From: a bacterium
Lineage (GTDB): Bacteria; UBP15; UBA6099; JAJRTR01
Direction of reading: 5' to 3'
NCBI GenBank assembly: GCA_024278215.1
Contig: JAJRTR010000064.1
Location: 1 to 60,133, forward strand
DNA length: 60,133 nucleotides
The position numbers and the translations under genes are program-made. Positions 6,560-46,856 of this stretch are shown here, one piece after another (positions within the stretch are counted from its first letter, which is position 1; each line of letters begins with the position of its first letter). The notes below the pieces were generated by a model. That model was not told the DNA's origin. It was given only the letters and a program-made list of their open reading frames with translations, and searched no databases.

Positions 6560-6617
6560 AATTTCACTTTGTTGCGTTACAAGCTGGAACGGTCGCAACC
6601 TGCACAGGTGAAATAAC

Positions 6618-6640
6618 GCGGGTTAACGATCAGAACCCGC
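6618..6640. other. Intercistronic hairpin between mlaE and mlaF
   Basis: The perfect stem GCGGGTT (6618-6624) and AACCCGC (6634-6640) has a 9-nt loop. Part of it (GGTGAAATAACGCGGGTTAA) resembles the family C hairpins found elsewhere in the window. There is no T-run, so it is more likely an mRNA stability element or repeat remnant than a terminator. Confidence 0.4.
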
Positions 6641-6644
6641 CGTC

Positions 6645-7424
6645 TCAGAACAGCATCAGGTCAAGCACATAATTCAGCGCGAATATCGCGACCATACCGT
6701 ACACCACGGCGTTTGTCGTCGCGCGGCCCACACCGAACGCGCCGCCCGTCGTGAACATGCCCTCGACACAACCCACCAGCGAGATGGCCACGGCGAAAAC
6801 ACCGCTCTTTATCAGCGCGGCGGTCACATCGGATGTTTCCACGAATTCGGGAATAAACTTGTAATAGGACGCCCATTCTATCGAGCCGCCGCTCACGAGG
6901 TTGGCGATCCAGTATCCCGCCATTATCCCCTCAAGACACGCGAGAACCGACAACACGGGAATCATGATGAACAGCGCCGTCATTCGCGGCACAACGAGGT
7001 ATTGAACAGGATTCGTCGCGAGCGAGCGCAAAGCGTCTATCTGGTCCGTGACCTTCATCGTGCCGAGTTCCGACGCGATAGACGACCCCACACGACCCGC
7101 CATAACAACCGCTGTCAGCATCGGCCCCAGCTCGCGCACCATTACATAGGCTATGCCGCCACCCACAAAATGGAGTGTGCCGAAACGCATCGCCTGCGTC
7201 GTGATCTGAAGCGACAGCATCATACCCGTGAATCCCACCACAAGGAAAACTATAGGGATCGAATTTATTCCCATATTCGACATCTGGAAAATGGTCAGCC
7301 GCCAGTCGACTGCAAGCCGCGCAAGGTAGTAAATCGTCGTCGCAAACATGACGCCCACCTTGCCGACATACTCGACAGGGCCGATCAGCCACTCCGGAAT
7401 AAAGTCCTCGAGCCGTTCGTTCAT
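6645..7424 (-). CDS. mlaE: MlaE-type phospholipid ABC permease
   Basis: This is a 259-aa integral membrane protein with an amphipathic N-terminal helix and about five membrane segments. Hallmark MlaE stretches are VMVRELGPMLTAVVMAGRVGSSIASELGTMKVTDQIDAL and the C-terminal VGCVEGMFTTGGAFGVGRATTNAVV. The family pairs with MlaF and an MCE protein to move phospholipids between inner and outer membranes. It is the first gene of a three-gene minus-strand cluster mlaE-mlaF-mlaD; no mlaB or mlaC is visible here. Confidence 0.9.
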   Translation of the reverse strand: MNERLEDFIPEWLIGPVEYVGKVGVMFATTIYYLARLAVDWRLTIFQMSNMGINSIPIVFLVVGFTGMMLSLQITTQAMRFGTLHFVGGGIAYVMVRELGPMLTAVVMAGRVGSSIASELGTMKVTDQIDALRSLATNPVQYLVVPRMTALFIMIPVLSVLACLEGIMAGYWIANLVSGGSIEWASYYKFIPEFVETSDVTAALIKSGVFAVAISLVGCVEGMFTTGGAFGVGRATTNAVVYGMVAIFALNYVLDLMLF

Positions 7425-7616
7425 ATCAAAATATTATCCATTTAACAGACTTATTTTTTTCTATTATTGTTGTAGAGGGGATATTTGTAATTTCACTTTG
7501 ACCCGGCAACAGGTATTATGCCCGGGAAAAGAGCAATAGAAAACACTATTTCCCGGGGCCGAGGTCCGCAATTGGCTCATAAAGTATGCAAAAAACATTA
7601 TGGGTGAAATATTAAT

Positions 7617-8633
7617 TCAGAACGTCACGTGGTGTTTGAAGAATTCCTTGAATTCTTTAAATTCGGCGAGTATTTTGCGAAGGCCGTGTATGACGGAGAG
7701 TTCGGGGTTTTCGATCATGTTTATTTTCATTTGCAGTTTTTCTTCGAGATAGGGTTCGAGTCCTTTGAGCCGGGCGGTGCCGCCTGTGAGGAACATGCCT
7801 CTGAAGAAGATGTCTTCGTAGAGTTCGGGCGGTGTCTGTTCGAGCACTTCGACGACGCCGTCGAGAATCGGTTCTATGGCCTGGCGGTTGAACTCGGCGA
7901 GTGAGCTGAAGGGGATGCGGACTTCCTTGAAGCCGGATTCGCCGGATTCGTGTTTGCGTTTTATCAGCATGTTTCCTTCGTTGGTTTTATCTACGCCGGC
8001 CTCGATCTTGGCTTTTACGGCGTCTTCCCGGCCGCACAGGACGCCGAATGTCATTTCCATGACGCGATGGATGGTTGCGGAGAGGTCGTCGCCGCCGATC
8101 TGGAGTGTTTTGCCGACGATGATTTCGTTGGAGGCGAGAACGGAGATGTTTGTTGTGCCTGCGCCGATGTCGACGACGAGGCTGCCGCGCGGGTCGTTCA
8201 GGTTGCCGGCTATGCCGACGTAAGACGCGAGGTTGCAGGGCACGAGATATATCTGGCCCGCGCCGGCTTCGCGGCCCGCGTCGCATAGCGCGCGTTCTTC
8301 CACGGAGTTGAGTTCGATGGGTACGGCGGCGACGATCATGGGACGCAACATGCGGGGAGGACGCATACCGTGCGAGAAGACGCGCCGGAGATAGAATTTC
8401 GTGGCGGCGTAGTCGGCGATGGCACCGCGCATTACGGGGCGCACGATGTCGTAGCCGGTGCCGAGTTTTCCCACGCGCTCCGCGGCTTCTTTGCCTGTGT
8501 AAGTGACACGGTTGTTTTTCGCGTCGGCCACCATGACTGTGGGCTCGTTGTAGCATATACGGCCAACTGTCGCGAGTACGGTTTTCCCCGTCCCGAGGTC
8601 CAGTCCGAGCCTTGGTATTATGTGTGGCAGCAT
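7617..8633 (-). CDS. mreB: MreB-family actin-like cell-shape protein
   Basis: The 338-aa protein has the actin/HSP70 nucleotide-binding signatures of MreB: phosphate-1 LGLDLGTGKTVLATVGR followed by NEPTVMVAD, phosphate-2 LVVDIGAGTTNISV, and adenosine motif MFLTGGTARLKGLEPYL. The conserved RPVMRGAIADY block is also present. MreB forms membrane-associated filaments that organise side-wall peptidoglycan synthesis. It lacks mreC/mreD neighbours and the C-terminus ends in a charged FKEFKEFFKHH tail, so it could be an MreB paralogue rather than the only copy. It is divergent enough from textbook MreB (DLGTG rather than DLGTAN) that I keep the family name with some caution. Confidence 0.8.
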   Translation of the reverse strand: MLPHIIPRLGLDLGTGKTVLATVGRICYNEPTVMVADAKNNRVTYTGKEAAERVGKLGTGYDIVRPVMRGAIADYAATKFYLRRVFSHGMRPPRMLRPMIVAAVPIELNSVEERALCDAGREAGAGQIYLVPCNLASYVGIAGNLNDPRGSLVVDIGAGTTNISVLASNEIIVGKTLQIGGDDLSATIHRVMEMTFGVLCGREDAVKAKIEAGVDKTNEGNMLIKRKHESGESGFKEVRIPFSSLAEFNRQAIEPILDGVVEVLEQTPPELYEDIFFRGMFLTGGTARLKGLEPYLEEKLQMKINMIENPELSVIHGLRKILAEFKEFKEFFKHHVTF

Positions 8634-14568: not shown

Positions 14569-14709
14569 TCCCCGAACCGAATTTTTCATTGGGCATAGCG
14601 TTTGAAGCCAGTGATTTGTGCTATTATATATGTACGTGGGCGCAAGCCGCGGGTCAGGTGTGTCCGCTTGTGTCAATGGAAATACAATTGGCTCCATAAA
14701 GACAAATTT

Positions 14710-17700
14710 ATGAACAATAACGCTGATTGTAACAATAAATCGTGCATTCCCCGCATTCGATTATTCGGATGTATGTTTTATGTTATTGCGGCGGTGTCGG
14801 CGCTGGTTTTTATTATCGCGGCCACAGCAGCGCCCGCCTTCGCATCGCGCCCGCCGACTCCCGAAGAGATTGAAAAATATACGCAGGACGGTACACTCGC
14901 CGAGCGCGTCGAGTTCATGAAGAACCTCGGCAACTACAGAATGGATAAGCAGCTTGCTGTCCGGAATTATTACAAACTTAAATACAAGTATGACAGGATG
15001 GTGGGGAACCCGGTGCCGCTGCAGGCGCCGCCGCCCGCGTGGAAGGGGATGCCGACGACGGGAACGGTGAAGGTTCTGATCCTTGCGATCGAGTTCGCAG
15101 ATTACGTGCACAACAACGACAAAACCGAGCTCGAGACGGAAATATTCGGCGCGGGCGACCCGGCGGACTATCCCTATGAGAGTCTCACGAATTATTACGA
15201 CAGAGCGTCCTACAGCCAACTGGATATTCAGGGCAATGTGCTGGGCTGGACGGCTTTCCCGGCCAATCGGGATACTTATGGCACGACGACCGCCGACCGG
15301 GAAAGTATGATAATGAGCGCTCTCGACTACTGGGACGGCGTGGGGCACGATTTCACACAGTACGACAACGACGGTGACGGGAAAATCGACTATTTCGCCG
15401 TTATCTGGGCGGGTCCGAATACCGGCTGGAGCAGTTTCTGGTGGTCATATAAAACAAACTGGAATGTAAATCCCACATACACAATCGACGGAAAAACGCT
15501 TGGTACTTATTCGTGGAATTATGAGTCGAAATACGAGGAACCGAACCCGCCGGGCGATTTCAAACCGCGAACGCTGATACACGAGACGGGCCACGCGCTG
15601 GGACTGCCGGATTACTATGATTATGACGTGGACACGGGGCCTGACGGCGGTGTCGGCAACTTCGACATGATGGACGCCAACCACGGCGACCACAACGCTT
15701 TCAGCAAATTCGTGCTCGACTGGATCACGCCCGTCGTTTATGCCGGCGGAACAGGTTCCATATCGTTGCGTGCTTCCGACTCATACCCGGACGCGGCGAT
15801 AATTATGCCGGAACTGCAATCCGGCGAACAGTTCGGCGAGTACTTCATTGTGCAGAACCGCGAGCAGAACGGAAACGACGACGGCATCTATGGTCAGGGC
15901 CTTGCAGTCTGGCATGTCGACGCCCGTCTCAATACCGCCGGAACGGATTACGAATACGACAACTCTTATACCGAACACAAGTTGCTGAGGCTTATGGAGG
16001 CCGACGGGCTCGAGGAGATCGAGGCGAGCGACAGCAGTTCTTATGACGCCGGTGATTTCTACGTCGCGGGCAACGAGTTCAGCTCGACCACCGTACCGAC
16101 AAACGCGCGCTACGACGGGACATCGTCGGGTTTTTCGCTTTACAATCTCTCCGCCGCGAGCACGACGATGACGCTCGACTACAGCTTCGACGATACACCG
16201 CCGGCGGACATCGCGACTGTCAGCGACGGCACGGGTGCGGACATCGACACTGTGGAATCACTCGACACGCTGTCGGCGAACTGGAGTGCTTCGTCCGACG
16301 CCGAGAGCGGCATACAGAAATACTGGTATGCTGTCGGGACGACGGCGGGGTCGGCGGACTTCGTCGACTGGACGGACAACGCGACCGCCACTGCCGTCAC
16401 CCGCGGCGGCCTGTCGCTCGCGGACGGCCAGGCGTATTTTTTCACGGTCAAAGCGCAGAACGGCGCGGGGCTATACAGCAACGCGACGGATTCGGACGGC
16501 CAGACGGTCGACGTTTTCACTGTCGTTTCCGTCACGCAGGTTTCGACGACGACGATAGATGTTAAGTACACAAAAGAAGTGGACTCGAGTCCGACGGCGG
16601 TGGATACGAATAATTACAGTGTGGACGGCGGCGTCGGGAATCCGACCGGCGCTGTGGCGCAGAGCACGGACACTATCCGCCTGACGACAGCCGAAATGGA
16701 CCCGTGCACACCTTATGTGCTGACGATCACCGGCGTGCTCAGCGATGCCGGCGCCGGCCTGTACGCCGGTTCGTCGCCCGCCGATGTCGACACGATGAAC
16801 ACGCTTATCAGCAGCAATGTCGCTACAGATACGACATGGACGCCCGCCGGCGGCCCCTACTGCGTCACTACGGATATAAATGTTTCCAGCGGCAACACAC
16901 TTACGATACAGGCCGGAACAACCGTATATTTCAAACCGGACGTCGGCGTGGACCTGACTGTGTTCGGAGAAATACAGGTGCAGGGGACAAGCGGTTCGCC
17001 TGTCGTTTTCACCTCGGCGAAGGCAACGCCCGCCGCGGGCGACTACGGGAGTATTCAACTGTCGTCTTCGTCGTCCGCCGGTTCGTCCATCTCCGGCCTG
17101 CACGAGTCTTACGCCGAATATGGGATGTATGTGTTCGGAGTAGCGCCGAATATTACAGAAAGCGAATTCTCGAACTGCCTGCAATCGTGTGTGACGCTGG
17201 ACGGCTCGAACGCGGTCGTATGGAAAAACACGTTTTCAGATTGCGGCGCGGGGACAAGTTCATGTGTGACCACCAGGGAAAGCAGTGAGGGGTATATAGT
17301 CGGCAACAACTTCAGCGGCGGCGACAGAGGCGTGAGCGTACGCTCATCATCATATATCATCGCCAATGATTTCGACGCTATGAACACGATAGGGCTTGGA
17401 ATAAGCGCGGGCGGCGGAGCCGCGATCATAAAAGAGAACAACTTCAGGGGGGCCACCTACGGGATATATACCTGGGCGGACGGCACCGACGCCGACGCGA
17501 CGCATAATTACTTCTCGGGCAACACGGTCGACACATTCGCCGACAGCGGTTGCAGTCCGGCCTGTACTATCGACAACAGCTATCCGCTGACGGATATGAT
17601 CGACGAATTTTTCGGAGTTACAGACCTTGTTTTGAAGTTGAGCGCGAGCTACACGGTGGACCTGCCGGAAAGCATCGCCGCGAGCTCCACTCTATACATC

Positions 17701-20700
17701 CAGGTGGACGGCACCGACGACGATACAACTACAATCAATTCTTTCCTGACCAGCGTCACCAGCGACTCGGACCCGGACGGTATTTATGTCGAACTTACCG
17801 AGACCGGCGTAAACACAGGCATCTACAGGGGCACGGCGGTGCTTGCCGCAGCGTCGGACCAGTCGGCGAACGAAATATTCGCTGTGGACGGCGATACTGT
17901 GACAGTCGGCGTTGTCAGAGACGGCGGCGCGACGAGCGATTCCGCTGTCGTCGCTTCCGATCTGACGCAGCCGACCGACATCGCTTATGTATACGACGGC
18001 CCCGGAGCGGACATCACTTGGGCAAGCAGTACGTCGGTATTATCCGCCAACTGGGCCGCCTCGAGCGATCCTGAAACCGGAGTCAGCGCGTATTTCGTGG
18101 CTATCGGCACGACCGCCGGCGCTACCGATGTATTCAACTGGACGAGTGTCGGCACACAAACATCGACTATCGTCGGCGGACTGTCTCTCGCGCAGGGCCA
18201 GACCGATTATGTGAGTGTTAAGGCGCGCAACGGCGCAGGTATGTATTCCAATGTCGCCACGTCCGACGGCCAGACTGTCGACAACACCGCTCCGGGCGAT
18301 ATAGCATCCATAAATGACGGACTGTCGGCGGATATCGATTACTCGTCGTCGACTGTTTCCCTGTCCGCCAACTGGGCCGACGCGGTCGATGCCCAATCCG
18401 GCGTTTCAACATACTGGATCGCTATCGGCACAGCCTCCGGCGCGGTCAATATTCTCCCATGGACGGACACCGGCGCAACCGCTACTTCCACTACTGTCTC
18501 CGGCATTTCAATCACGCACGGCAACACATATTACTTCCAGGCCGCCGCGCGCAACGGCTCGGAGATGTTCGGCAACGCCATAGTGTCCGACGGTGTTCTC
18601 ATCGACACGACGGCACCGACCGATATTGCAACCGTCAACGACGGCGCGGGCGCGGATATCGCATGGTCTACCTCGAGCACGACCGCTTCCGCCAACTGGT
18701 CCGATTCTTCAGACGGAGAATCCGGAGTGGCTTCGTATTATTACGCGATAGGCTCCGCCGCCGGTGCGACGGATGTTGTCGACTGGACGGATAACGGAAC
18801 CGCAACAGACGTCACCCGCGCCGGGCTTGCCCTCTCGGATGGAACTACATATTACTTCTCGGTCAAAGCGCGTAACAATGTAAGTATCGACACGTCCGTC
18901 ACTTCGTCCGACGGCTGGACGGTGGACACGACGCCACCGACGGCTGTCGCAACCGTCAATGATGGCCCGGGCGCTGATGTCGACTGGGGGAACTCGACTT
19001 CAACGATTTCAGCCAACTGGAGCGCGGCGTCCGATCCGCATTCGGGAATCGCAAGGTATTATTACGCTGTCGGCACAATCGCCGGCGCGACGGATGTCGT
19101 CGGCTGGACCGACAACGCGACGGCCACTTCCGTCACACACAGCGGGCTGTCACTCACGGAAGGAAACACATATTACTTCGCGGTTAAGGCCGAAAACGCG
19201 GCCGGCCTCGTTTCATCCGCCGTCGACTCGGACGGACAGACGATAGATGTCTCCGCGCCGACCGCTGTCGCGACTGTCAACGACGGCACAGGTGCGGACA
19301 TCGCGTGGTCGACGGCGACGGCATCGCTTTCCGCGAACTGGTCGGAGGCGGCTGACCCGCAGTCGGGGATACTCGCCTACTGGTACGCTGTCGGCACGAC
19401 CGCCGGCGCGACGGATGTCGTCGACTGGACGGATAACGGCGCGGCCACTTCCGTCACGAAATCCGGACTCGCGCTCACCGAGGGCCAGGCGTATTACTTC
19501 GCTGTGAAAGCACAGAGCGGCTCGCTCGCGTTCAGCAGTGAGACATACTCGAACGGCCAGAAAGTGGACTCGCAGCCGCCCGCCGATGTCGCAAATGTGA
19601 ACGACGGCACTGCCGCAGATATCGATTACGCGACTTCCCCGACACAGCTTTCGGCCAACTGGAGCGGCACGACCGACGATGGAACGGGCGTGGCCGCCTA
19701 CTGGTATGCAATCGGCACGACCGCGGGCGCGACGGACGTTGTCGGCTGGACGGACATCGCTTCGGATACGTCCGTGACCCGCACCGGCCTTACACTGACA
19801 GAGGCGCAGGCGTATTACTTCACAGTGAAAGCCGAAGACGGTGTGGGGTTCGAGTCGACACCTGTGTTTTCCGACGGCCAGACGGTGGACACGACGTTTG
19901 CCACGCAGTCGGACTGGAGCCCCGCGAAGGGTGCGACGATAACGGTGACGACCCCGACTATTACATTCACTACGAGCGAAAACGCATACTGCCGGTGGTC
20001 CGACACAGACCAGGCATACGCGGACATGTCCGGCGACTGCACAGGCGACGGGACAACCAGCCAGTCGTGCGCGGCGTCGGCTCTCCCGCAGGGAAGCGCG
20101 TCCGTTTATATCTCGTGCAGCGACATGGCGGGCAATGAAGACACCGCGGGAACAAACGAAGAAATAAGCTATTTCGTCGACTCGATCCTGCCCGCGCAGA
20201 GCGGCTGGAGCCCGGCGGATGGCGAAACGATTGCCACGACGACTCCGTTAATATCTTTCACAACAGACGAAACCGCCGGCTGCCTGTGGTCCCTCTCCGA
20301 CCAGGCCTACGGTGATATGAACCCGGCGAACACCTGTTCCGCTTCGGCAACTGTTTCGCATTCATGCGCGGTCACGGGCCTTGTCGAAGGTGCGCAGAAT
20401 GTGCACATAGCCTGCGCCGACACGAGCGGCAACGAAGACTCGGCATCAACAAATACCGACCTCGGTTACACCGTCGACATTACACCGCCCGACCAGTTGT
20501 CGTGGGTTCCCGCGAAGAGTTCCACGCTGACGGCGACTTCACAGGACATCGTCGCGACAACCGACGAGCAATCGAATTGCCGCTGGGCGCTCACCGACCT
20601 GGCTTACGGCGATATGGCCGTCGGAAACGCCTGCACAGGCGATGGAACGGCTTCGCATACATGCCCGGCGACCGGCTTCGATCAAGGATTCGAGATTGTG

Positions 20701-23700
20701 TACATCGCGTGCGCCGACGAACACGGCAACGAGGACACAATCGCGACGAACGAGCAGGTCAACTACTTTGTCGATTCCCTGACTCCCGTTCAGAGCAACT
20801 GGAACCCGGCGAAAGGTGCGACGATAACAACGACAATACCGATCATCACATTCGACACCGACGAAAACGCCACCTGCCGCTGGTATATACTGGACGCGGC
20901 CTATGGCTCGATACCGCCCGGCAACACCTGCGACGGCGGCGGGACGTCCGCGCAAAGTTGCGGCACGGGCGGCCTTAGCGAAGGTGCCGCCACGGTTTAT
21001 ATCGCTTGCATCGACGAAGCCGGAAACGCCGACACCGATTCGACAAATCAGGATATTAACTATTTCATCGACATGACCCCCCCGGCGCAGAGCGGCTGGA
21101 ACCCGGCGGACTCCGCGACTATCGCATCCACAACGCAGGCGATATCTTTCACCACCGACGAAAACGGCGCGTGCCGCTGGTCGCTTACCGACCAGGCCTT
21201 CGCCGACATCGACACGGGCAACGCCTGCGCAGGCGCGACATCCACCGCCCACGTATGCACCGCCGCCGGCCTTGTCGAAGGTTCGGAATATATCTTCATT
21301 TCCTGCACCGACGAATACGGCAACGCCGACACTGCGGGCACGAACGACGCTCTGAATTACACAATCGATCTGTCGCCCCCCGTGCAGAGCGGCTGGAGCC
21401 CGGCGACCGGAACATACATTACAACTTCGTCGCAAACGATAACCTTCACAACGGACGAGAACGCCGATTGCCACTGGTCGCTCACCGACCAGGCTTACGC
21501 CGATATGGGCGGCGACTGCGCGGGCGACGGCACCACCGGCCAGTCGTGCGCCGCGACCGGCCTGTCGTCCGGCCCCGAAGTCGTTTATATCGCCTGCGCC
21601 GACACATACGGAAACGAAGACACGGCAGACACAAACAAAGAACTCGCCTACACGGTGGACACAACCGCGCCGTCCGATATTGCGACTGTTTATGACGGCG
21701 ATACTATCGGGGTGGACATCGACACGACAGAATCGGGCGTCGAGCTTTCCGCCAACTGGACGGCATCCGCCGACGCCGAATCAGGTATTGCGAAATACTG
21801 GTATGCTGTCGGAACCACCGCCGGGGCAACCGATCTCGTCGGCTGGACCGACAACGGCGCGAGTACTTCTGTCACAAAAACCGGTCTCGCTCTCGCCGAC
21901 GGGCAGACATACTACTTCACAGTGAAAGCGGAAAACGGCGTCGGCCTGCAATCGACGCCCGCAAACTCGGACGGCCAGACTGTCGATATCCTCGACCTTA
22001 CACCGCCCGCCGATATCGCTTCTGTTTATGACGGACCCGGACCCGGCGCTGACATCGACTTCGCGTCGTCCACAACGCAGCTTTCGGCGACCTGGTCGGA
22101 CTCGACCGACGCCGAATCGGGCATCGCGGGCTACTGGTACTCCATCGGCACGACATCCGGCGCAAGCGACACCGTAGGCTGGACATACGCCGCAACGAGT
22201 GCGACCTCAACCGTTGTAACAGGTCTCACACTCGCGGACGGCGCGACTTATTATGTTTCCGTCAAGGCGCTCAACGGTGTCGGCCTGTTGTCGAATGTCG
22301 CGACATCTGACGGGCTCACAATCGACGCGACACCGCCCGCGGACGTTATTGTCGACGACGGCCCCGGCACCGACATCGACTTCGCGTCGTCCACCACGCA
22401 GCTATCGGCAAACTGGTCGGCCTCGACCGACGCGCAGACCGGTATCTCCGCGTACCTGTTCGCTGTCGGCACTTCCGCGGGCGCAACGGACACCATCGAC
22501 TGGACCGGCAACGGCACCGACACTTCGGCGGTTGTCACGGGCCTGACACTCACGGAAGGAACAACATATTATTTCACTGTGAAGGCGGAAAACGGTGTCG
22601 GTGTGTTCTCGACCGCCGCGAATTCAGACGGCGTCACGATTGACGTTTCGCCGCCCGTGCAGAGTGCGTGGTCGCCCGCGGACGGTTCGACTGTTACAAC
22701 CACTTCGCCATCGATCACTTTCACAACCGACGAAAACGCCACCTGCCGCTGGTCGCTCACAGACCTCGCGTACAGCGATATGAACGCGGGCAACGCCTGC
22801 TCCGCCTCGGAAACAACAAGTCATACTTGCGCCGTGTCCGGGCTGCCGGAAGGCGCGAATACTATATATATTTCCTGCGCCGATTCAATCGGCAACGAGG
22901 ATACTACATCAACGAATGATCAACTGGCATACACTGTCGATACCACTCCGCCCGTGCAGAGCGCATGGTCGCCTGCGGACGGTTCGACAATAATTACCGA
23001 CGCGCCCTCGATAACATTATCGACCGACGAAAACGCGACATGCCGCTGGTCGCTCACAGACCTCGCATACAGCGATATGTCCGCGGGCGACGACTGCGGC
23101 GGCTCCGGCATCACCGCGCACACGTGCGCCGCATCCGGACTCGCCGAAGGCGAGAACTCCATCTATATCGCCTGCGCAGACACGCCGGGCAATGAAGATT
23201 CGATCTCGACCAGTACGCAACTCGACTACACTGTCGACACCACGCCGCCCGCGCGGAGCGGCTGGAGCCCGGCGACGGGAACTTACATCACAACCACATC
23301 GCCGACGATAACATTCACTACTGACGAGGCCGCCACCTGCCGCTGGTCGCTCTCCGACCTGGCTTACGGCGGCATGTCCGGCGACTGCACGGGCGACGGC
23401 ACAACAAGCCAGTCGTGCGCCGCGACCGGCCTGTCGTCCGGCCCCGAAGTCGTTTATATCGCCTGCGCAGACACGCCCGGAAACGAGGACACGGCGGCCA
23501 CAAACGACGGCCTCGCCTACACGGTGGACACAACCGCGCCGTCCGACATTGCGACCGTATACGATGGCGATACTATCGGGGTGGACATCGACACGACGGA
23601 ATCGGGCGTCGAGCTTTCCGCCAACTGGACGGCCTCGACCGACACCGAATCGGGAATCGCGAAGTACTGGTACGCTGTCGGAACCACCGCGGGCGGAACG

Positions 23701-25350
23701 GACCTCGTAGACTGGACGGACAACGGCGCGAACACTTCTGTCACAAAAACCGGCCTCGCACTCGCCAACGAACAGACGTATTATTTCACGGTAAAGGCGG
23801 AAAACGCCGCCGGTCTGCAATCGACGCCCGTAAACTCGGACGGCCAGCAGGTCGATATACAGGACACGACCGCGCCGACGGATGTCGCATGGGTTTATGA
23901 CGGAACCGGTGCGGACATAGATTATTCGAGTTCGACCGCCATGCTTTCCGCCAACTGGGCGCCCGCCGCCGACTCCGAATCCGGCATCGCGGGCTACTGG
24001 TACTCCATCGGCACGACGTCCGGCGCGAGCGACACCGTAGGCTGGACTTACACCGGGACGAGCGCGACATCATCGTCAATAACCGGTCTCGCACTCGCCG
24101 ATGCGCAGACTTATTACATTTCTATCAAAGCACAGAACGGCGTAGGGCTTGTGTCCGCGGGCACAGGAATGTCGGACGGCGTGACGATCGACACCACGCC
24201 GCCGTCGCAGATCACGAATGTGAACGACGGAGCCGGCGCCGACGTGGAATATTCATCCGAAGAATCAACGCTGTCCGGCAACTGGGACGCGGCGTCCGAT
24301 GCGCAATCGGGCATATCGAGATACATATACGCCATCGGCACAGCAGCAGGCGCGACAGATACTGTCGGATGGACGGACAACGGCACAAATACTTCATTCA
24401 CCAAAACCGGCCTCACCCTCGAGGACGGACAGGTTTATTACATTTCCGTAAAAGCGGAAAACGGACTCGGGCTCGAATCCACTCCCGCAAACTCCGACGG
24501 AGCGATGAAAGATTCGTCGCCCCCGAACGATGTGACGCAGGTAAACGACGGCACCGGCACAGACATCGACACAATAGAATCGACATCCGAACTTTCCGCC
24601 AACTGGTCGGCGGCAACAGACCCCCACAGCGGCATAGCGACTTATTACTATGCGATCGGAACAGGCACGACGATGAATAATATTGTCGATTGGACAGATG
24701 CGGGCGCGACAACTTCCGTCACGGTTTACGGTCTTGGCCTTATGGATGGAGAGACTTATTATTTTTATATCAGGGCGGTAAACAGCGCCGGTCTCGAATC
24801 CGAACCATTCTCCTCCGATGGAGTGACTGTCGACGTGCCGGATACCGGATTCCAACTCGGCACGGGCTGGAACCTGATGGGTATTTCTTTGCAGAATGTT
24901 ACAATAGACCTCGATGAAATGGCGTCCGGCGCGAGCGGAACGGTCGAATTCGAAGTCGCGGCAATCAGCGGCAGCGCTGTGAGCTACATTACGGACCAGT
25001 CGAGTTTCAGCGCTTCCTTCACCGGCGGCTACTGGATATTCAGCGACACGGCGCTCGAATACAGCAGCATCAGCGGCGACACGTACACAGGAGCGAGCTA
25101 CGACATCAGTCTTACCGGCGGCTGGAACACCTTCTCGAACCCCTACGATCAAGCACTCGAGTGGTCGGACACTGGCGCGGCACTCGACTGCGGTGCCCCG
25201 GCATCGTTGCCGCCCATTTACGCCTACGACAACGGTACCGGTTCTTATATTAAGGTCGAACCCGGCTCCGGCACGCGCATCTCACCCTGGAAGGCCTACT
25301 GGATCGAAGTCGATTCTTCCTGCACCCTGACAATAAGCAATCCACAATAA
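14710..25350 (+). CDS. Giant secreted M6-family metalloprotease with 23 adhesive-type repeats
   Basis: About 3,546 aa from the ATG at 14710 (MNNNADCNN); the frame runs 36 codons further upstream but without a signal-like start. A membrane/signal segment (FYVIAAVSALVFIIAATAAPAFA) precedes an immune-inhibitor-A-type M6 domain with zinc motif HETGHALGLPD at residues ~291-301 and FDMMDANHGDHNAFSK downstream. Then: fibronectin-like repeat A1, an Ig-like segment, a right-handed beta-helix-like region (~17.0-17.6 kb), repeats A2-A7, six cysteine-bearing Ig-like repeats B1-B6 (four Cys each, xCRWSLTDQAY), A8-A10, B7-B9, A11-A14, and a C-terminal GWNLMGI/GWNTFSNPY domain (~24.85-25.35 kb). It is likely surface-bound or released and acts on external protein or carbohydrate-rich matrix. 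There is no neighbouring inhibitor or transporter. Confidence 0.88.
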   Translation: MNNNADCNNKSCIPRIRLFGCMFYVIAAVSALVFIIAATAAPAFASRPPTPEEIEKYTQDGTLAERVEFMKNLGNYRMDKQLAVRNYYKLKYKYDRMVGNPVPLQAPPPAWKGMPTTGTVKVLILAIEFADYVHNNDKTELETEIFGAGDPADYPYESLTNYYDRASYSQLDIQGNVLGWTAFPANRDTYGTTTADRESMIMSALDYWDGVGHDFTQYDNDGDGKIDYFAVIWAGPNTGWSSFWWSYKTNWNVNPTYTIDGKTLGTYSWNYESKYEEPNPPGDFKPRTLIHETGHALGLPDYYDYDVDTGPDGGVGNFDMMDANHGDHNAFSKFVLDWITPVVYAGGTGSISLRASDSYPDAAIIMPELQSGEQFGEYFIVQNREQNGNDDGIYGQGLAVWHVDARLNTAGTDYEYDNSYTEHKLLRLMEADGLEEIEASDSSSYDAGDFYVAGNEFSSTTVPTNARYDGTSSGFSLYNLSAASTTMTLDYSFDDTPPADIATVSDGTGADIDTVESLDTLSANWSASSDAESGIQKYWYAVGTTAGSADFVDWTDNATATAVTRGGLSLADGQAYFFTVKAQNGAGLYSNATDSDGQTVDVFTVVSVTQVSTTTIDVKYTKEVDSSPTAVDTNNYSVDGGVGNPTGAVAQSTDTIRLTTAEMDPCTPYVLTITGVLSDAGAGLYAGSSPADVDTMNTLISSNVATDTTWTPAGGPYCVTTDINVSSGNTLTIQAGTTVYFKPDVGVDLTVFGEIQVQGTSGSPVVFTSAKATPAAGDYGSIQLSSSSSAGSSISGLHESYAEYGMYVFGVAPNITESEFSNCLQSCVTLDGSNAVVWKNTFSDCGAGTSSCVTTRESSEGYIVGNNFSGGDRGVSVRSSSYIIANDFDAMNTIGLGISAGGGAAIIKENNFRGATYGIYTWADGTDADATHNYFSGNTVDTFADSGCSPACTIDNSYPLTDMIDEFFGVTDLVLKLSASYTVDLPESIAASSTLYIQVDGTDDDTTTINSFLTSVTSDSDPDGIYVELTETGVNTGIYRGTAVLAAASDQSANEIFAVDGDTVTVGVVRDGGATSDSAVVASDLTQPTDIAYVYDGPGADITWASSTSVLSANWAASSDPETGVSAYFVAIGTTAGATDVFNWTSVGTQTSTIVGGLSLAQGQTDYVSVKARNGAGMYSNVATSDGQTVDNTAPGDIASINDGLSADIDYSSSTVSLSANWADAVDAQSGVSTYWIAIGTASGAVNILPWTDTGATATSTTVSGISITHGNTYYFQAAARNGSEMFGNAIVSDGVLIDTTAPTDIATVNDGAGADIAWSTSSTTASANWSDSSDGESGVASYYYAIGSAAGATDVVDWTDNGTATDVTRAGLALSDGTTYYFSVKARNNVSIDTSVTSSDGWTVDTTPPTAVATVNDGPGADVDWGNSTSTISANWSAASDPHSGIARYYYAVGTIAGATDVVGWTDNATATSVTHSGLSLTEGNTYYFAVKAENAAGLVSSAVDSDGQTIDVSAPTAVATVNDGTGADIAWSTATASLSANWSEAADPQSGILAYWYAVGTTAGATDVVDWTDNGAATSVTKSGLALTEGQAYYFAVKAQSGSLAFSSETYSNGQKVDSQPPADVANVNDGTAADIDYATSPTQLSANWSGTTDDGTGVAAYWYAIGTTAGATDVVGWTDIASDTSVTRTGLTLTEAQAYYFTVKAEDGVGFESTPVFSDGQTVDTTFATQSDWSPAKGATITVTTPTITFTTSENAYCRWSDTDQAYADMSGDCTGDGTTSQSCAASALPQGSASVYISCSDMAGNEDTAGTNEEISYFVDSILPAQSGWSPADGETIATTTPLISFTTDETAGCLWSLSDQAYGDMNPANTCSASATVSHSCAVTGLVEGAQNVHIACADTSGNEDSASTNTDLGYTVDITPPDQLSWVPAKSSTLTATSQDIVATTDEQSNCRWALTDLAYGDMAVGNACTGDGTASHTCPATGFDQGFEIVYIACADEHGNEDTIATNEQVNYFVDSLTPVQSNWNPAKGATITTTIPIITFDTDENATCRWYILDAAYGSIPPGNTCDGGGTSAQSCGTGGLSEGAATVYIACIDEAGNADTDSTNQDINYFIDMTPPAQSGWNPADSATIASTTQAISFTTDENGACRWSLTDQAFADIDTGNACAGATSTAHVCTAAGLVEGSEYIFISCTDEYGNADTAGTNDALNYTIDLSPPVQSGWSPATGTYITTSSQTITFTTDENADCHWSLTDQAYADMGGDCAGDGTTGQSCAATGLSSGPEVVYIACADTYGNEDTADTNKELAYTVDTTAPSDIATVYDGDTIGVDIDTTESGVELSANWTASADAESGIAKYWYAVGTTAGATDLVGWTDNGASTSVTKTGLALADGQTYYFTVKAENGVGLQSTPANSDGQTVDILDLTPPADIASVYDGPGPGADIDFASSTTQLSATWSDSTDAESGIAGYWYSIGTTSGASDTVGWTYAATSATSTVVTGLTLADGATYYVSVKALNGVGLLSNVATSDGLTIDATPPADVIVDDGPGTDIDFASSTTQLSANWSASTDAQTGISAYLFAVGTSAGATDTIDWTGNGTDTSAVVTGLTLTEGTTYYFTVKAENGVGVFSTAANSDGVTIDVSPPVQSAWSPADGSTVTTTSPSITFTTDENATCRWSLTDLAYSDMNAGNACSASETTSHTCAVSGLPEGANTIYISCADSIGNEDTTSTNDQLAYTVDTTPPVQSAWSPADGSTIITDAPSITLSTDENATCRWSLTDLAYSDMSAGDDCGGSGITAHTCAASGLAEGENSIYIACADTPGNEDSISTSTQLDYTVDTTPPARSGWSPATGTYITTTSPTITFTTDEAATCRWSLSDLAYGGMSGDCTGDGTTSQSCAATGLSSGPEVVYIACADTPGNEDTAATNDGLAYTVDTTAPSDIATVYDGDTIGVDIDTTESGVELSANWTASTDTESGIAKYWYAVGTTAGGTDLVDWTDNGANTSVTKTGLALANEQTYYFTVKAENAAGLQSTPVNSDGQQVDIQDTTAPTDVAWVYDGTGADIDYSSSTAMLSANWAPAADSESGIAGYWYSIGTTSGASDTVGWTYTGTSATSSSITGLALADAQTYYISIKAQNGVGLVSAGTGMSDGVTIDTTPPSQITNVNDGAGADVEYSSEESTLSGNWDAASDAQSGISRYIYAIGTAAGATDTVGWTDNGTNTSFTKTGLTLEDGQVYYISVKAENGLGLESTPANSDGAMKDSSPPNDVTQVNDGTGTDIDTIESTSELSANWSAATDPHSGIATYYYAIGTGTTMNNIVDWTDAGATTSVTVYGLGLMDGETYYFYIRAVNSAGLESEPFSSDGVTVDVPDTGFQLGTGWNLMGISLQNVTIDLDEMASGASGTVEFEVAAISGSAVSYITDQSSFSASFTGGYWIFSDTALEYSSISGDTYTGASYDISLTGGWNTFSNPYDQALEWSDTGAALDCGAPASLPPIYAYDNGTGSYIKVEPGSGTRISPWKAYWIEVDSSCTLTISNPQ
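16195..24840 (+). repeat. Tandem protein-domain repeats in the M6 protease (14 type A, 9 type B)
   Basis: Type A repeats (~105 aa) follow the pattern DIATVNDGTGADID, LSANWS, YYYAIGTTAGATDVVDWTD, TYYFSVKAQNG, SDGQTVD. Type B (~98 aa) follow PPVQSGWSPADG, FTTDENATCRWSLTDLAY, CAASGL, YIACADTPGNED. Order: A1, other domains, A2-A7, B1-B6, A8-A10, B7-B9, A11-A14. The block B6-A8-A9 (21370-22310) and B9-A11-A12 (23250-24180) are close copies about 1.87 kb apart at nucleotide level. Confidence 0.85.
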
Positions 25351-41617: not shown

Positions 41618-44600
41618 ATGAGACGAAAACTGAATATCAGGCAACCTGACATAGAGAATGCCTCCGACAGGAAAGTCATAATTCCCAGAGGTAAATTTTA
41701 TTGCATAGCGATAGCGGTGCTCCTGGCTGTGGCAGTGAGCGGCGCGACGGTGTTTGCGAATATCGTGGAATGGGATTCGGTCAACGGCGGCGGCGCCGAT
41801 CTGACAGCCGGCGGCACAAACTATCTGAGCGGCAGCATCGGCCAGCTTGTTGTCGACGCGAGTTCACCCGCCGCAGACGATCTGAAAGACGGCTACCGTA
41901 TAGCGATTCCCGAGGCTGCGGCTATCGAATGTCGAAACGCGGGCGCGGCCTGCACCGGCACATGCTACGGCCCGGCAAATAAAACATTCACGTTTTACAA
42001 TACGATGGGCGGCGGAACTGTGGGGTCGCCGACTGCGTTCAACTCCGGCTCGACGCAATATTATCTGTACCTCTGGCAGACAAACAACACATACAGTTAC
42101 AGCACAATACTGGGAGGCAACGACTGGAGCGACACGGCGGCGCTGTGCGAAGGCGGCGCGTGCGACAAAAGCGGTACATCAATGACAATCGACGCCACGT
42201 CGACAAGCAGCACCTGGTACTTTATAGCGAAGAGCTTCAATGGCGGACAGTGCGCGACAGGCGCGGGTTCGTGTGAAGGGCTGACGACTTACAACACGGT
42301 TGAGATCGGGCCGATCCAGTATGATGAAGACGCCGCGATCGCCGGTTCTCTCGGCGCGGTTACCGTCTCGAACCAGGCTAATGGAACCCATGTGGACGGT
42401 AATGGTTTCGACATCGACATGAGCGGTATTGTTACGACGGGCTGTTCCGCGACGACCGGCTGTCAGTACTGCGTGGCTAATGATGGAAGTTGCGACACCG
42501 AATGGGCAGCGGCAACTTACGCGGCAGGCGCGTGCGACCAGAACACGGTAACCTGCACAGACGGCGATACGGAAACAATAAATATGAGGGCCGTGGACGG
42601 ACTCAGCAACTACACGGCGGGAACAGAGATAACACGAACATGCGACGCCGCGGCGCCGTCCGTCACACAGGTACTGCCGGACTCGGACACATATACAAAT
42701 TCCACAAACATCACGAGCGGCGACGTGACTTGCAGCGACGGTACAGGCGTCGGACTGCACGCAACACCTTATGACGTGCAGTATTGCAAAAGCAATGTGG
42801 CGAAAACAGACTGCGACGACGCGACCGACACATGGAGCGATTCCGGCACAATCGGCTACACAGCCACAGCCAACCAGACGGTCAACAGTGCCGACGATGG
42901 ATACTATTTCTGTTTCAGGGCGAGATGCAGGGATGCGTTCGCTCACGAATCTTCGTGGATGTACTCGATGGACGCGCCGGCAGGTTGCATTTTCATCGAC
43001 AGGCAGGCACCGCCCAACCCGACAGTCTCCGGATATGACGACTCCAACAAAGGCGTAGCACTTGTTTCAGGCAACGGCTATCCATATGACGCGCCCAGCG
43101 GACCATATTTCGAATGGAACGATCCGACAGACGCTCCGGCGTCACCCGCGAACTCGGGAATAAAAGGTTACTATGTGTATTTCGGGACAAACAGCAGTTT
43201 CGACCCGGTTACCTACCAGGCGGCGGCCTCACCCAACACCTTTACAAACTCGACCTCGCTGACAAATGGAACAACTTATTATCTCAGGATAAAAACAGAA
43301 GACAACGCGGGCAATATCTCGACCGCGGCAACATTGTTCACCTATACGTACACGAGCGGCGCATACCTGCGGGCGACGGCGGTAGATGCGGACGCGACCT
43401 CATACGGTGGCGACCTGGGAACAACCGACGGCTCGGCCTCGGCGGCATCGACGACATTGCTCGACGGAGTGCTGAACCCGGACGGCACCGAATTCGAGAT
43501 AGTGCTGGTACAGCTTTACGACGAAGCCGACTCGATGATAACAAACGGAACACTGGCCACAAGCACAGTCCAGATATCGCTGGGTTCCGATGGAACAAGC
43601 CTTGTCGACAGTAGCGCGTATATCGACTCGACGGGCCTGACGGGAGCAGGAGCCACGGGGCCCGGCGTTACATCCGTCACAGGCAACCTGGTTGCCGGTG
43701 AAGGCTGGATCAAGATAAAAGCAACAGCGGCGGCGTCCGAAGCGATTTATGTCGAGGCCGCGCAAGCCGGCACCTCATCCTTCTCCGGAACAGGAGGCCG
43801 CAACCAGCGTGCCTATGTCCTGATACGTGATAAAACCGGATTCGGTGAAGGCATCGACACAGTTACCGACATGATGTCGCCGATAGCGGGCGGAACGGTC
43901 ATGCACCCGGTGTGGAGCCACGGGGGCACAGAGATCGTCGTTGCGGCCAGGACAGCGGCGGCAACAGGCTGGAACCTGTGGTTGATCGACTGGAACGGCA
44001 GCAGCTGGGATGCCGCCATAAGGCTGACCAATAATGGAATGTGTGTGCAGCCGATGGCCAGATATACATTTAACTCGGACGACAGCAAGGTAATATTTAC
44101 CGGCAGGGACGGATGTACGACCTCCGACGCGCCCGAAATGTACGCCGTTAACGCAGATGGTTCAGACAATGCCGATACGCTGGCAACTCTCGACTCGGAA
44201 AACAAACATATTTCAAATAAAACAGGTGGCACACCCTACTACTGGTGGGATGCCGAATGGAATGTCAACGCGGGTCCGTATGCCGACCAGTTGCTCGTTT
44301 CACTGGTAGACTTTTCCAACGTCGACCTGGAACTCTACTTCATGAACGGAGTAAAAACGGGCGGCCTATACCTCGAAGACAGCGTCGGCACAACATTTAC
44401 AAAGGTAACGGATTTCAATAACGCGAATTCATGGTCTTTTCACGGCTCGATGTCGGCCGACGGTACAAAAGTCACATTCGCCGTATGGGACTGGGGCACA
44501 ACCAGCTCGGATATGTATGTGACAAGCATCTATTCCGTCGATCTCACAGTAGCGACTTTACCGGTAACAGGTGTAGGGCCGGGAGTGGAACTGGTGCAGT

Positions 44601-45823
44601 CATGTTCCGCATCCTCATGTCCCAACGGCGCGGGGCTGTTCCCTTCATACACAAACGACGGCACAATGGTATCATATATGACAGATGATCTTACCGGATC
44701 GACCTTCGACATGCGCAACTTGATCAACGCGGGCTCCACGCTCGGCGGCGACATTACAACCGACTTCTTCACCGGTGCCAATTTCGACAATTATGTCGAG
44801 TACCTCGGCGACGGCATATACAGTCCGCAACTTCTTGGACAGAGCGAAAACAATGAGTTCGGACTCGTCCAGTGCCACGGCGCGGGATGCCCGCAGTCGA
44901 CAAACGGAAACCTGTTCGCCTATATAACACTCGACCCGGGCGGGACAACAGACGGGAAGCTTAAATTCCTGGAACTTTCCGACGTAAGCACAGTATCCAG
45001 CAACGGCGGACTGCTCTTCTTCCAAGGCTCTGTCAGTGCGGTTATTCCTCCCGGAGCAGTCCTGAGCGACGAAGTGAAACTGCAAGTTACAGCGCCCGGC
45101 TCGGCACCGAGTTCGCCCGACGGCAAAGACGTGCTCGTCAGCACAGGCGAGGCCCGCGAGTTCTTCCCGGACGGCGTCAAATTCAACAAAGACATCCTGA
45201 TGGTTTTCCATTATTGCGACCAGGACAACGATGGTATGCTCGACACCAATCAGGACGCAAACTGCACAGGAGGCGGGAACTCCGCGATAGACGAAAACGA
45301 TCTTTATGTCTACTTCTGGTGTGAAGACAGCGCACTGGGATGCACACAGGACGCATGGAACAAGCTCGACGGCTCGATCGATCCGACAAACGACACGATC
45401 ACAGTAGCAATAAACCATTTCTCGAAATATGACGTGTGGGCACTGATGAACGGCAGATACGCGCCGGCGGCATTCGTCGAACTCAACCTTGTGGACCTCC
45501 ACACATATCCCAATCCCTGGAGAACAGGTTACGGAAATGTCGAATTTTCTGTCTCCAATTCCAGTACGTACAATGCAGGAAACATCTCAGTCAGTGTGTC
45601 GATATACGACATCAGGGGCAAACTCGTGAGGACAATAAACGAGTTCTGGTCCGGCACCCTGCCGAACAACACCGCCGGAACGGGCCTGATGGTCGCGCAA
45701 TGGGATGTTAGGAACAACGCGGGCAGGCAGGTGGCGTCCGGCATATATCCTTATGTATTAAGGATAAGCGACGGACAGAATTTCAATAAGACATACACCG
45801 GAAAACTGACGGTTGTCAGATAA
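41618..45823 (+). CDS. Large secreted protein with beta-propeller, ZU5-like and FlgD/type-A C-terminal domains
   Basis: About 1,401 aa from ATG 41618, preceded by CAGGA; another ATG at 41600 has no ribosome site. A signal segment lies near residue 30 (FYCIAIAVLLAVAVSGATVFA). Then: a cysteine-rich Thr/Ser-rich region, a fibronectin-like block (GIKGYYVYFGTNSSFDP, TTYYLRIKTEDNAGNIS), and TolB-like propeller motifs (HPVWSHGGTEIVVAAR, FNSDDSKVIFTGRDG, FHGSMSADGTKVTFAVWDWG). A ZU5-like stretch follows (GSVSAVIPPGAVLSDEVKLQV). The C-terminus (DLHTYPNPWRTGYGNVEFSVS to ASGIYPYVLRIS and YTGKLTVVR) is FlgD-Ig/type-A sorting-domain-like. It is likely surface-displayed; the following gene encodes a PorV-like protein. 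Confidence 0.82.
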   Translation: MRRKLNIRQPDIENASDRKVIIPRGKFYCIAIAVLLAVAVSGATVFANIVEWDSVNGGGADLTAGGTNYLSGSIGQLVVDASSPAADDLKDGYRIAIPEAAAIECRNAGAACTGTCYGPANKTFTFYNTMGGGTVGSPTAFNSGSTQYYLYLWQTNNTYSYSTILGGNDWSDTAALCEGGACDKSGTSMTIDATSTSSTWYFIAKSFNGGQCATGAGSCEGLTTYNTVEIGPIQYDEDAAIAGSLGAVTVSNQANGTHVDGNGFDIDMSGIVTTGCSATTGCQYCVANDGSCDTEWAAATYAAGACDQNTVTCTDGDTETINMRAVDGLSNYTAGTEITRTCDAAAPSVTQVLPDSDTYTNSTNITSGDVTCSDGTGVGLHATPYDVQYCKSNVAKTDCDDATDTWSDSGTIGYTATANQTVNSADDGYYFCFRARCRDAFAHESSWMYSMDAPAGCIFIDRQAPPNPTVSGYDDSNKGVALVSGNGYPYDAPSGPYFEWNDPTDAPASPANSGIKGYYVYFGTNSSFDPVTYQAAASPNTFTNSTSLTNGTTYYLRIKTEDNAGNISTAATLFTYTYTSGAYLRATAVDADATSYGGDLGTTDGSASAASTTLLDGVLNPDGTEFEIVLVQLYDEADSMITNGTLATSTVQISLGSDGTSLVDSSAYIDSTGLTGAGATGPGVTSVTGNLVAGEGWIKIKATAAASEAIYVEAAQAGTSSFSGTGGRNQRAYVLIRDKTGFGEGIDTVTDMMSPIAGGTVMHPVWSHGGTEIVVAARTAAATGWNLWLIDWNGSSWDAAIRLTNNGMCVQPMARYTFNSDDSKVIFTGRDGCTTSDAPEMYAVNADGSDNADTLATLDSENKHISNKTGGTPYYWWDAEWNVNAGPYADQLLVSLVDFSNVDLELYFMNGVKTGGLYLEDSVGTTFTKVTDFNNANSWSFHGSMSADGTKVTFAVWDWGTTSSDMYVTSIYSVDLTVATLPVTGVGPGVELVQSCSASSCPNGAGLFPSYTNDGTMVSYMTDDLTGSTFDMRNLINAGSTLGGDITTDFFTGANFDNYVEYLGDGIYSPQLLGQSENNEFGLVQCHGAGCPQSTNGNLFAYITLDPGGTTDGKLKFLELSDVSTVSSNGGLLFFQGSVSAVIPPGAVLSDEVKLQVTAPGSAPSSPDGKDVLVSTGEAREFFPDGVKFNKDILMVFHYCDQDNDGMLDTNQDANCTGGGNSAIDENDLYVYFWCEDSALGCTQDAWNKLDGSIDPTNDTITVAINHFSKYDVWALMNGRYAPAAFVELNLVDLHTYPNPWRTGYGNVEFSVSNSSTYNAGNISVSVSIYDIRGKLVRTINEFWSGTLPNNTAGTGLMVAQWDVRNNAGRQVASGIYPYVLRISDGQNFNKTYTGKLTVVR

Positions 45824-45947
45824 TAAATAACCGGCTGTTATGATCTCATGTGGATTTATTTGCAAGTAGTAAAACAGGAGAATTTGTTTGTAAAGAACGT
45901 GATCGGGGTATAAAGAAGTAGGGATTACCTCAAGAGGGGATATAGAT

Positions 45948-46856
45948 ATGAATGTAAAGAAAACGATTAAAACAGTGTTATTCGCAGCCTTTGCGCTGGC
46001 GATTCTGCCGGTGATAAGTTATGCGACAGGAACAACAGGCGCGACATTTCTCAACGTGGGAGTGAGCGCGCGGTCGGAAGCCATGGGCGGCGCATATTCG
46101 GCAATAGCGGACGACGCCAGTGCCGTCACGATAAACCCCGCTGGAATGGTTCAGGTCAAAAAGAGCCAGGTCTCCGTAATGCACAACGAGTCACTCCTGG
46201 ACATCAACCAGGAATACTTCTCTTACGTGACCAACTGGGGAAATAAAGCATTCGGCACGAATCTTATATATGTGGACTATGGCACACAGATGTTCAAGGA
46301 TGAAAACGATGCCGGCACCAGCACATTCAAACCCAAGAGTTACGCGCTGTCATTCGCATATTCAGCTTATGCGAGCAAAGTGCTTTCCTATGGCGTAGCG
46401 ATCAAATATGTAAAAATGGACATCGGCGTTGACAACTATGAAGACTCGACATTTGCCGTAGACCTCGGCCTGCTCTACAAACCACATCCCAAAGGATGGC
46501 GTATGGGCGCTGTTCTCTCACATCTCGGCGGAGGCCTTACCCTCTACAAAGAAGAAGACCCGCTGCCACTCACATTCAAAATCGCCACCGCCTATGAATG
46601 GGACAATATACCCCTCCTCGCTTCATTCGACTGGTACATGATCAAGGAAGAGAACCCGGAATACCACTTCGGCGCGCAATACACAATCTCCGATATCGTG
46701 CCTGTCAGACTGGGCTATTCCTCGCAGAGCGATCTCGACAACGGCTTCTCTTATGGAATCGGCCTTGTGCAGGACCAATTCGCTCTTGACTATGCGTTTA
46801 TCCCAGCCGGCGAAATGGACGATACACACAGGTTCTCACTATTGTTTAATTTCTGA
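45948..46856 (+). CDS. PorV/PorQ-family outer membrane protein (UPF0164-like)
   Basis: 302 aa with a signal peptide (VLFAAFALAILPVISYA). The hallmark N-terminal block GATFLNVGVSARSEAMGGAYSAIADDASAVTINPAGM is diagnostic of the FadL-like PorV/PorQ group. The rest is alternating strands ending in RFSLLFNF. In Bacteroidota, PorV takes type IX secretion cargo at the outer membrane. Here it lies 124 bp after a gene for a protein with a type-A-like C-terminal domain, so the pair may form a cargo and receptor unit. No PorU sortase is in view. Confidence 0.85.
   Translation: MNVKKTIKTVLFAAFALAILPVISYATGTTGATFLNVGVSARSEAMGGAYSAIADDASAVTINPAGMVQVKKSQVSVMHNESLLDINQEYFSYVTNWGNKAFGTNLIYVDYGTQMFKDENDAGTSTFKPKSYALSFAYSAYASKVLSYGVAIKYVKMDIGVDNYEDSTFAVDLGLLYKPHPKGWRMGAVLSHLGGGLTLYKEEDPLPLTFKIATAYEWDNIPLLASFDWYMIKEENPEYHFGAQYTISDIVPVRLGYSSQSDLDNGFSYGIGLVQDQFALDYAFIPAGEMDDTHRFSLLFNF

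What the first reader, a model, noticed from the sequence alone, without database searches (positions are those of the whole stretch)
41618..46856. Cargo-receptor pair: FlgD/type-A C-terminal domain next to a PorV-like protein
The 1,401-aa secreted protein ends in a domain of the type-A sorting/FlgD-Ig kind (YPNPWRTGYGNVEFSVS to GKLTVVR). It is followed directly by a PorV/PorQ-type barrel. In Bacteroidota, PorV receives type IX cargo through such domains. The pairing outside an evident Bacteroidota context may be a reduced or separate secretion route.
Basis: partly seen in the sequence, partly recalled or inferred. Interest (0 to 1): 0.55.

Follow-up and report, generated by a model that had tools for sequence, protein, structure and literature searches.

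The report
Surface protein with dedicated membrane receptor
In an uncultured bacterial lineage far from the Bacteroidota, large exported proteins carry a docking tail like that of the type IX secretion system, and each is encoded next to its own private outer-membrane receptor although the usual export channel was not found, which suggests a stripped-down or separate version of that system.

Summary
Window 41618-45823 encodes a secreted 1,401-aa protein whose last ~100 residues form a type-A/PorU-like C-terminal domain (CTD). A PorV-family barrel (45948-46856, 185.5 bits against a 90-bit cut-off) follows 124 bases later on the same strand. The genome is a 4.5-Mb MAG; order-mates include GTDB UBP15/UBA6099. 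It has four good CTD genes (one more weak), and three of its four PorV-family genes lie directly downstream of one. Across seven genomes of the order, 20 of 21 evaluable PorV genes have a CTD gene immediately upstream. No full-length SprA was found in any of the seven. They do have shorter barrel-like proteins related to SprA over about 220 residues; one is encoded directly after the cargo-PorV pair in sister genomes. GldL and GldM models find nothing convincing, but had no positive control. Over 76 CTD-PorV pairs, partners co-diverge within genomes (r=0.79, p=0.0002). In Bacteroidota, type-A cargo shares a single PorV; one-to-one partners are known there for type-B cargo and SprF. I read this as a new variant: cognate type-A CTD/PorV pairs in a SprA-less lineage. 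The route across the outer membrane is inferred, not shown.

The parts
41618..45823 (+). Secreted 1,401-aa CTD protein (cargo); hydrophobic signal-like N-terminus, fn3-like and ZU5-like stretches below Pfam cut-offs, C-terminal type-A-like domain
   Evidence: signal peptide judged by eye
44990..45229 (+). ZU5-like stretch of the cargo (15.8 bits, cut-off 21)
45506..45820 (+). C-terminal Ig-like domain, type-A/PorU-like, seven predicted strands, ends TGKLTVVR
45948..46856 (+). PorV/PorQ-family outer-membrane barrel, presumed dedicated partner of the CTD

Best explanation
The pair is a cognate cargo-receptor unit of type IX ancestry. Inferred steps: the giant protein is exported by Sec; its type-A-like CTD binds the loops of the PorV-family barrel encoded directly downstream; it stays on that private partner as a one-to-one outer-membrane anchor, as PorU is thought to do on PorV (recalled) and SprB on SprF, instead of being handed off by one shared, recycled PorV. 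Shown: the CTD resembles the PorU CTD, the partner is PorV-family, the two are adjacent and such partners co-diverge, and the arrangement recurs three times in the genome. Inferred and weaker: since no full-length SprA was found, one of the shorter SprA-related barrel-like proteins (linked to the pair in sister genomes, unlinked on contig C137 here) serves as the outer-membrane passage.
For: PorV family, and PorV the only PDB sequence hit. CTD profile and model both match the PorU CTD best. Own genome: three CTD-PorV pairs (C34 = window, C193, C117). Order: 20 of 21 evaluable PorV genes have a CTD gene directly upstream; G024+G033 (no SprA) 10 of 13; weak or divergent SprA 12 of 17; full-length SprA 34 of 59. 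Pairs per CTD gene: 20 of 41 in the order, 10 of 17 in G024+G033, 12 of 101, and 34 of at least 469 in SprA genomes. Within-genome co-divergence of partners r=0.79, p=0.0002, 76 pairs. Cargo-PorV-short SprA gene order in G001 and G004 (L054, L056) and partly in G006 (L057); PorV-short SprA in G002 (L058). A second cassette, CTD protein then short SprA-like protein without PorV, in G001, G003, G004, G006. Short family versus ten full-length SprA: E 6e-12 over SprA 563-781; reversed, shuffled and PorV controls E >= 0.18.
Against: No binding or export is shown. The window CTD alone misses the FlgD_ig and Por_Secre_tail cut-offs. Two of the order's cassettes carry a short SprA-like gene, but in the window's own genome these genes are not linked to a CTD-PorV pair. 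hmmscan of the short proteins lists no SprA model at E <= 0.1, and their predicted structure failed (pLDDT 31), so barrel size and a pore are unknown. Genomes with full-length SprA also hold short relatives, so these may do something else. One pair type lies in an ftsEX operon in all seven genomes, which fits an envelope role as well as export. Co-divergence can arise from duplication of whole pairs. In the order's genomes tested alone (G001, G004; four pairs each) it is not significant.
Confidence: 0.5

Rival explanations
1. Periplasmic docking without export: the CTD protein stays in the periplasm and is tethered to the inner side of the outer membrane by its PorV-family barrel.
For: No full-length SprA and no GldL/GldM found. 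The C117-type pair precedes ftsE-ftsX in all seven order genomes, with M23 (seen in L072) and S41 peptidase genes further on, a setting for wall remodelling at division.
Against: In Bacteroidota the CTD is bound by extracellular loops of PorV inside the SprA pore (PMC10994853, passages read), so a periplasmic mode would need a new interface. Short SprA relatives are linked to CTD genes in two cassettes.
Confidence: 0.25
2. A complete but highly diverged T9SS: SprA, motor and ring exist but fall outside the models.
For: Two C25 proteins and SprA-domain proteins are present. GldM rang in none of 60 genomes, not even the ten with full-length SprA, so that model may simply be blind outside Bacteroidota.
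Against: The same SprA model finds 1,879-2,400-aa SprA in ten other genomes, yet in seven genomes of this order finds only about 100-residue matches. CTD genes number 5-8 per genome against 11-76+ in SprA genomes.
Confidence: 0.13
3. Ordinary neighbours: a FlgD-type Ig domain as a structural module beside a FadL-type transporter, with no functional tie.
For: FlgD_ig and TodX/FadL models give weak matches too.
Against: Adjacency at 76 of 110 evaluable PorV genes; within-genome co-divergence; PorU CTD and PorV are the best PDB matches.
Confidence: 0.05

Closest known systems
Type A CTD and PorV carrier of the Bacteroidota type IX secretion system (PorU-PorV, RemZ-PorV)
   Same: CTD fold and terminal GK-hydrophobic motif, PorU CTD as best match, PorV-family barrel
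   Different: Each CTD gene of a pair has its own adjacent PorV gene; in Bacteroidota all type-A CTDs are recognised by the one PorV shuttle (PMC12618676, abstract and passages read). No full-length SprA, and no GldL/GldM detected.
Type B CTD with cognate PorP/SprF carrier (SprB-SprF)
   Same: Cargo gene with a dedicated outer-membrane carrier directly downstream; one-to-one pairing; large proteins
   Different: Here the CTD is type-A/PorU-like and the carrier is PorV/PorQ family, not PorP/SprF.
SprA (Sov) translocon
   Same: Shorter proteins in the order share about 220 contiguous residues with SprA and end in F like outer-membrane barrels
   Different: 1,127-1,858 aa for the five copies in the window's genome instead of about 1,900-2,400; pore and lateral gate unknown

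Membership tests
Type IX secretion system | Full-length SprA/Sov translocon | tested here: not met
   TIGR04189 above cut-off in 0 of 7 order genomes, while 10 of 60 genomes in the same search are above it
Type IX secretion system | GldL/GldM (PorL/PorM) motor | tested here: inconclusive
   GldM 0 of 60; GldL none above cut-off in 60; no positive control rang
Type IX secretion system | PorK, PorN, PorT and other subunits | not tested
Type IX secretion system | PorU sortase (C25 protease with CTD) | tested here: not met
   Two C25 proteins, PorU model 139 and 130 bits against 420; no CTD reported on either
PorV/PorQ family | NF033709 subfamily cut-off (90 bits) | tested here: met
   185.5 bits, model 1-326 of 326
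T9SS PorV proper | NF033710 equivalog cut-off (250 bits) | tested here: not met
   87.3 bits
Type A sorting domain (TIGR04183) | Curated cut-off 23 bits | tested here: inconclusive
   23.7 bits in the genome search, 16.1 with hmmscan
Type A sorting domain (TIGR04183) | Seven-strand Ig-like sandwich | tested here: inconclusive
   Seven strands in a pLDDT-64 model; PorU CTD best by Foldseek, Z 9.0 among ties by VIA-align
FlgD Ig-like domain (PF13860) | Gathering score 27 bits | tested here: not met
   18.7 bits for the window protein; the C193 paralogue reaches 39.2
SprA family (short proteins) | Homology to SprA | tested here: met
   hhalign 97% probability, E 6e-12 over SprA 563-781; controls E >= 0.18
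SprA family (short proteins) | 36-strand barrel with lateral opening | tested here: inconclusive
   AlphaFold model unusable, pLDDT 31

The most novel reading that the evidence does not exclude
A motorless type-IX-like export route: short SprA homologues act as outer-membrane passages, and each of a handful of giant CTD proteins is carried and then permanently held by its own PorV-family partner. Either this is an ancestral stage of type IX secretion before the shared PorV, full-length SprA and rotary motor, or it is a reduced descendant, and one such pair has been recruited to the ftsEX division operon.
Probability: 0.28. Interest if true: 0.85.

Novelty: new variant of a known kind. Interest (0 to 1): 0.6.

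Why it matters
A review seen here describes type IX secretion as specific to Bacteroidota (PMC7463736, abstract and passages seen), with one shared PorV for all type-A cargo (PMC12618676). If type-A CTDs pair one-to-one with private PorV proteins elsewhere, with or without SprA, then carrier specificity came before the shared shuttle or evolved in parallel with it. What the minimal working set is, and what the motor adds, becomes directly testable. It also means that 'type A sorting domain' labels outside Bacteroidota should not be read as evidence for a full T9SS.

Tried and rejected
Structure of the short SprA-like protein (five sequences): pLDDT 31, discarded. PDB sequence searches with it, alone or as a profile, found nothing. 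hmmscan of these proteins gives only weak phage-tail and DUF2460 matches below cut-off and no SprA; I kept the SprA relation because profile-profile comparison with reversed, shuffled and PorV controls supports it. The first hhalign setting (-M first) gave no match; only the 50%-gap setting did, with query and template swapped agreeing. VIA-align ranks other Ig-like domains level with or above PorU, so the fold alone does not separate type A from other Ig domains. A first look upstream of PorV hits ignored strand and was redone. One search has 113 PorV hits from 22 genomes: 110 evaluable; three have under 300 bases upstream in the fetched stretch and were set aside. PorV genes found only by the NF033709 model (own C117, C55) are not in that count; of these C117 has a CTD gene upstream and C55 does not. 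The ten SprA sequences are the longest ORFs of ten fetched stretches, and the short-family alignment uses 16 of the 28 ORFs extracted. CTD counts for some SprA-bearing genomes are lower bounds because only 76 candidates per genome were scored. G001, G003, G004 and G006 share one genus, so rows are not independent.

Literature: searches for PorV or type IX with non-Bacteroidota or candidate-phylum terms found no paper; some searches listed papers that I judged off the point from titles and abstracts; one search matched an unrelated gene name. 'Not in print' is not claimed beyond these searches of an open-licence library. Papers read in passages: PMC12618676, PMC10994853, PMC7463736.

Full report
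What is there. The two genes are as described: a 1,401-aa secreted protein (41618-45823) and, 124 bases later on the same strand, a 302-aa barrel protein (45948-46856). The barrel is a clear PorV/PorQ-family member (NF033709 185.5 bits, cut-off 90), and its only PDB sequence match is F. johnsoniae PorV (E 1.6e-9). The cargo's own CTD scores below the FlgD_ig and Por_Secre_tail cut-offs and straddles the TIGR04183 cut-off. A profile of 12 CTDs from the order matches the CTD of PorU best (E 2.4e-11), through to the last strand where FlgD stops short. The AlphaFold model of the CTD is modest (pLDDT 64, seven strands) and has the PorU CTD as first Foldseek match; by VIA-align it ties with other Ig domains.

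Where it is. The window is contig C34 of a 4.55-Mb assembly, 95% complete. The 60-genome search set holds six other genomes of the same order and none marked as same class or phylum. Named order-mates are UBP15_UBA6099, ADurb.Bin236, DeMMO6_30, USMO_maxbin.112 and USCA_metabat.19. That these stand for GTDB phylum UBP15 rests on one record title.

Pairs. The genome has PorV-family genes on C34, C193, C117 and C55 and CTD genes on C34, C193, C117 and C126 (E at most 1e-16) plus a weak, not quite terminal one on C98. Three PorV genes lie directly downstream of a CTD gene; C55 does not. Over the 60-genome set, 22 genomes have PorV relatives at E at most 1e-10. Testing the ORF just upstream of each with the CTD profile: seven order genomes 20 of 21 evaluable; G024 and G033 (no SprA) 10 of 13; G035, G044, G045 (weak or divergent SprA) 12 of 17; ten genomes with full-length SprA 34 of 59. 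Set against all CTD matches, that is 20 of 41, 10 of 17, 12 of 101, and 34 of at least 469. So where SprA is full length most CTD proteins have no private PorV, and where it is missing about half or more do. Partners co-diverge: over 76 pairs, within-genome distances of PorV and CTD correlate at r=0.79 (permutation within genomes, p=0.0002). Alone, G051 r=0.92, p=0.0001; G035 p=0.012; G024 p=0.012; G007, G031, G001 and G004 (four pairs each) not significant. Duplication of whole pairs would also give this.

Other parts. The SprA model finds full-length proteins (1,879-2,400 aa) in 10 of 60 genomes, all of which also have PorV relatives, but in the seven order genomes only matches of about 100 residues, mostly in proteins of roughly 1,060-1,250 aa. 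A profile of these proteins finds five in the window's genome (C137, C86, C51, C186, C109) and several matches in each order-mate. By hhalign they share SprA 563-781 contiguously (E 6e-12); reversed, shuffled and PorV controls give E of 0.18 or more; similarity nearer the C-terminus is weak, 0.005-0.016. Genomes with full-length SprA also hold short relatives, so the short family is not simply a truncated SprA of this order. In G001 and G004 the order is cargo, PorV, short SprA-like; G006 shows the same with the last gene cut by the contig end; G002 has PorV then short SprA-like without cargo. The named record L105 shows all three genes (alignments A2, A4, A5). A second cassette, a propeller-Ig CTD protein then a short SprA-like protein, occurs in G001, G003, G004 and G006. 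In the window's genome the C137 copy is not linked to the pair. Two C25 proteins are present, at 139 and 130 bits against the PorU cut-off of 420. GldM rang in none of 60 genomes and GldL in none above cut-off, neither with a positive control, so absence of a motor is not shown.

How it most likely works. In F. johnsoniae the type-A CTD binds extracellular PorV loops inside the SprA pore and PorV carries it out through the lateral opening (PMC10994853, passages). All type-A CTDs there use one PorV, whereas type-B cargo uses cognate SprF-like carriers encoded directly downstream, thought to remain with the cargo (PMC12618676, passages). The present arrangement combines a type-A/PorU-like CTD and PorV-family carrier with the one-to-one genetics of type B. 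I therefore propose a permanent, private anchor. The passage across the membrane is the open step; the short SprA-like proteins are the best candidates by gene linkage and homology, but no structure supports a pore. The ftsEX linkage of the C117-type pair in all seven genomes keeps a periplasmic, envelope-bound role alive.

Verdict. Observation confirmed; interpretation partly supported. Not a canonical T9SS by the tested parts; a new variant of the CTD/PorV part of that system, with the mechanism inferred.

Noticed in passing
L021:142-5055 (own contig C117); same in L068, L069, L070, L072, L073, L199: One CTD-PorV pair lies directly upstream of ftsE and ftsX in all seven genomes of the order, with an M23 peptidase (seen in L072) and an S41 C-terminal processing protease further on where the contig reaches.
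   Followed up: partly
L189:5362-11426, L190, L191, L192: A CTD protein of about 850 aa with PQQ-propeller and Ig-like domains is followed directly by a short SprA-like protein of 1,115 aa, with no PorV between.
   Followed up: partly
L138:6898-12474 (own contig C51): A 1,858-aa short-SprA-family protein sits next to what look by eye like flagellar hook-associated, FliW and flagellin genes.
   Followed up: no
L064:6799-8592 and L020:5395-6975: Two PorV-family paralogues carry long C-terminal extensions (597 and 526 aa in all), one lysine-rich, of unknown role.
   Followed up: partly
14602-25350: A 3,582-aa ORF with M6-peptidase-like, NosD-like and fibronectin type III stretches lies between a phosphate acetyl/butyryltransferase gene and a radical-SAM gene.
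   Followed up: partly
4446-8633: MlaD, ABC ATPase and MlaE genes followed by an MreB-like gene, all on the minus strand.
   Followed up: partly
L021:9294-11357, L021:11431-16797, L017:9485-17866: Several giant secreted proteins end in a similar tryptophan-glycine-aromatic motif near the C-terminus that is not the PorU-like CTD.
   Followed up: no
L204:766-4333 (G033): In a SprA-less genome outside the order, a CTD-PorV pair is followed by an 890-aa porin-like protein, another candidate membrane partner.
   Followed up: partly
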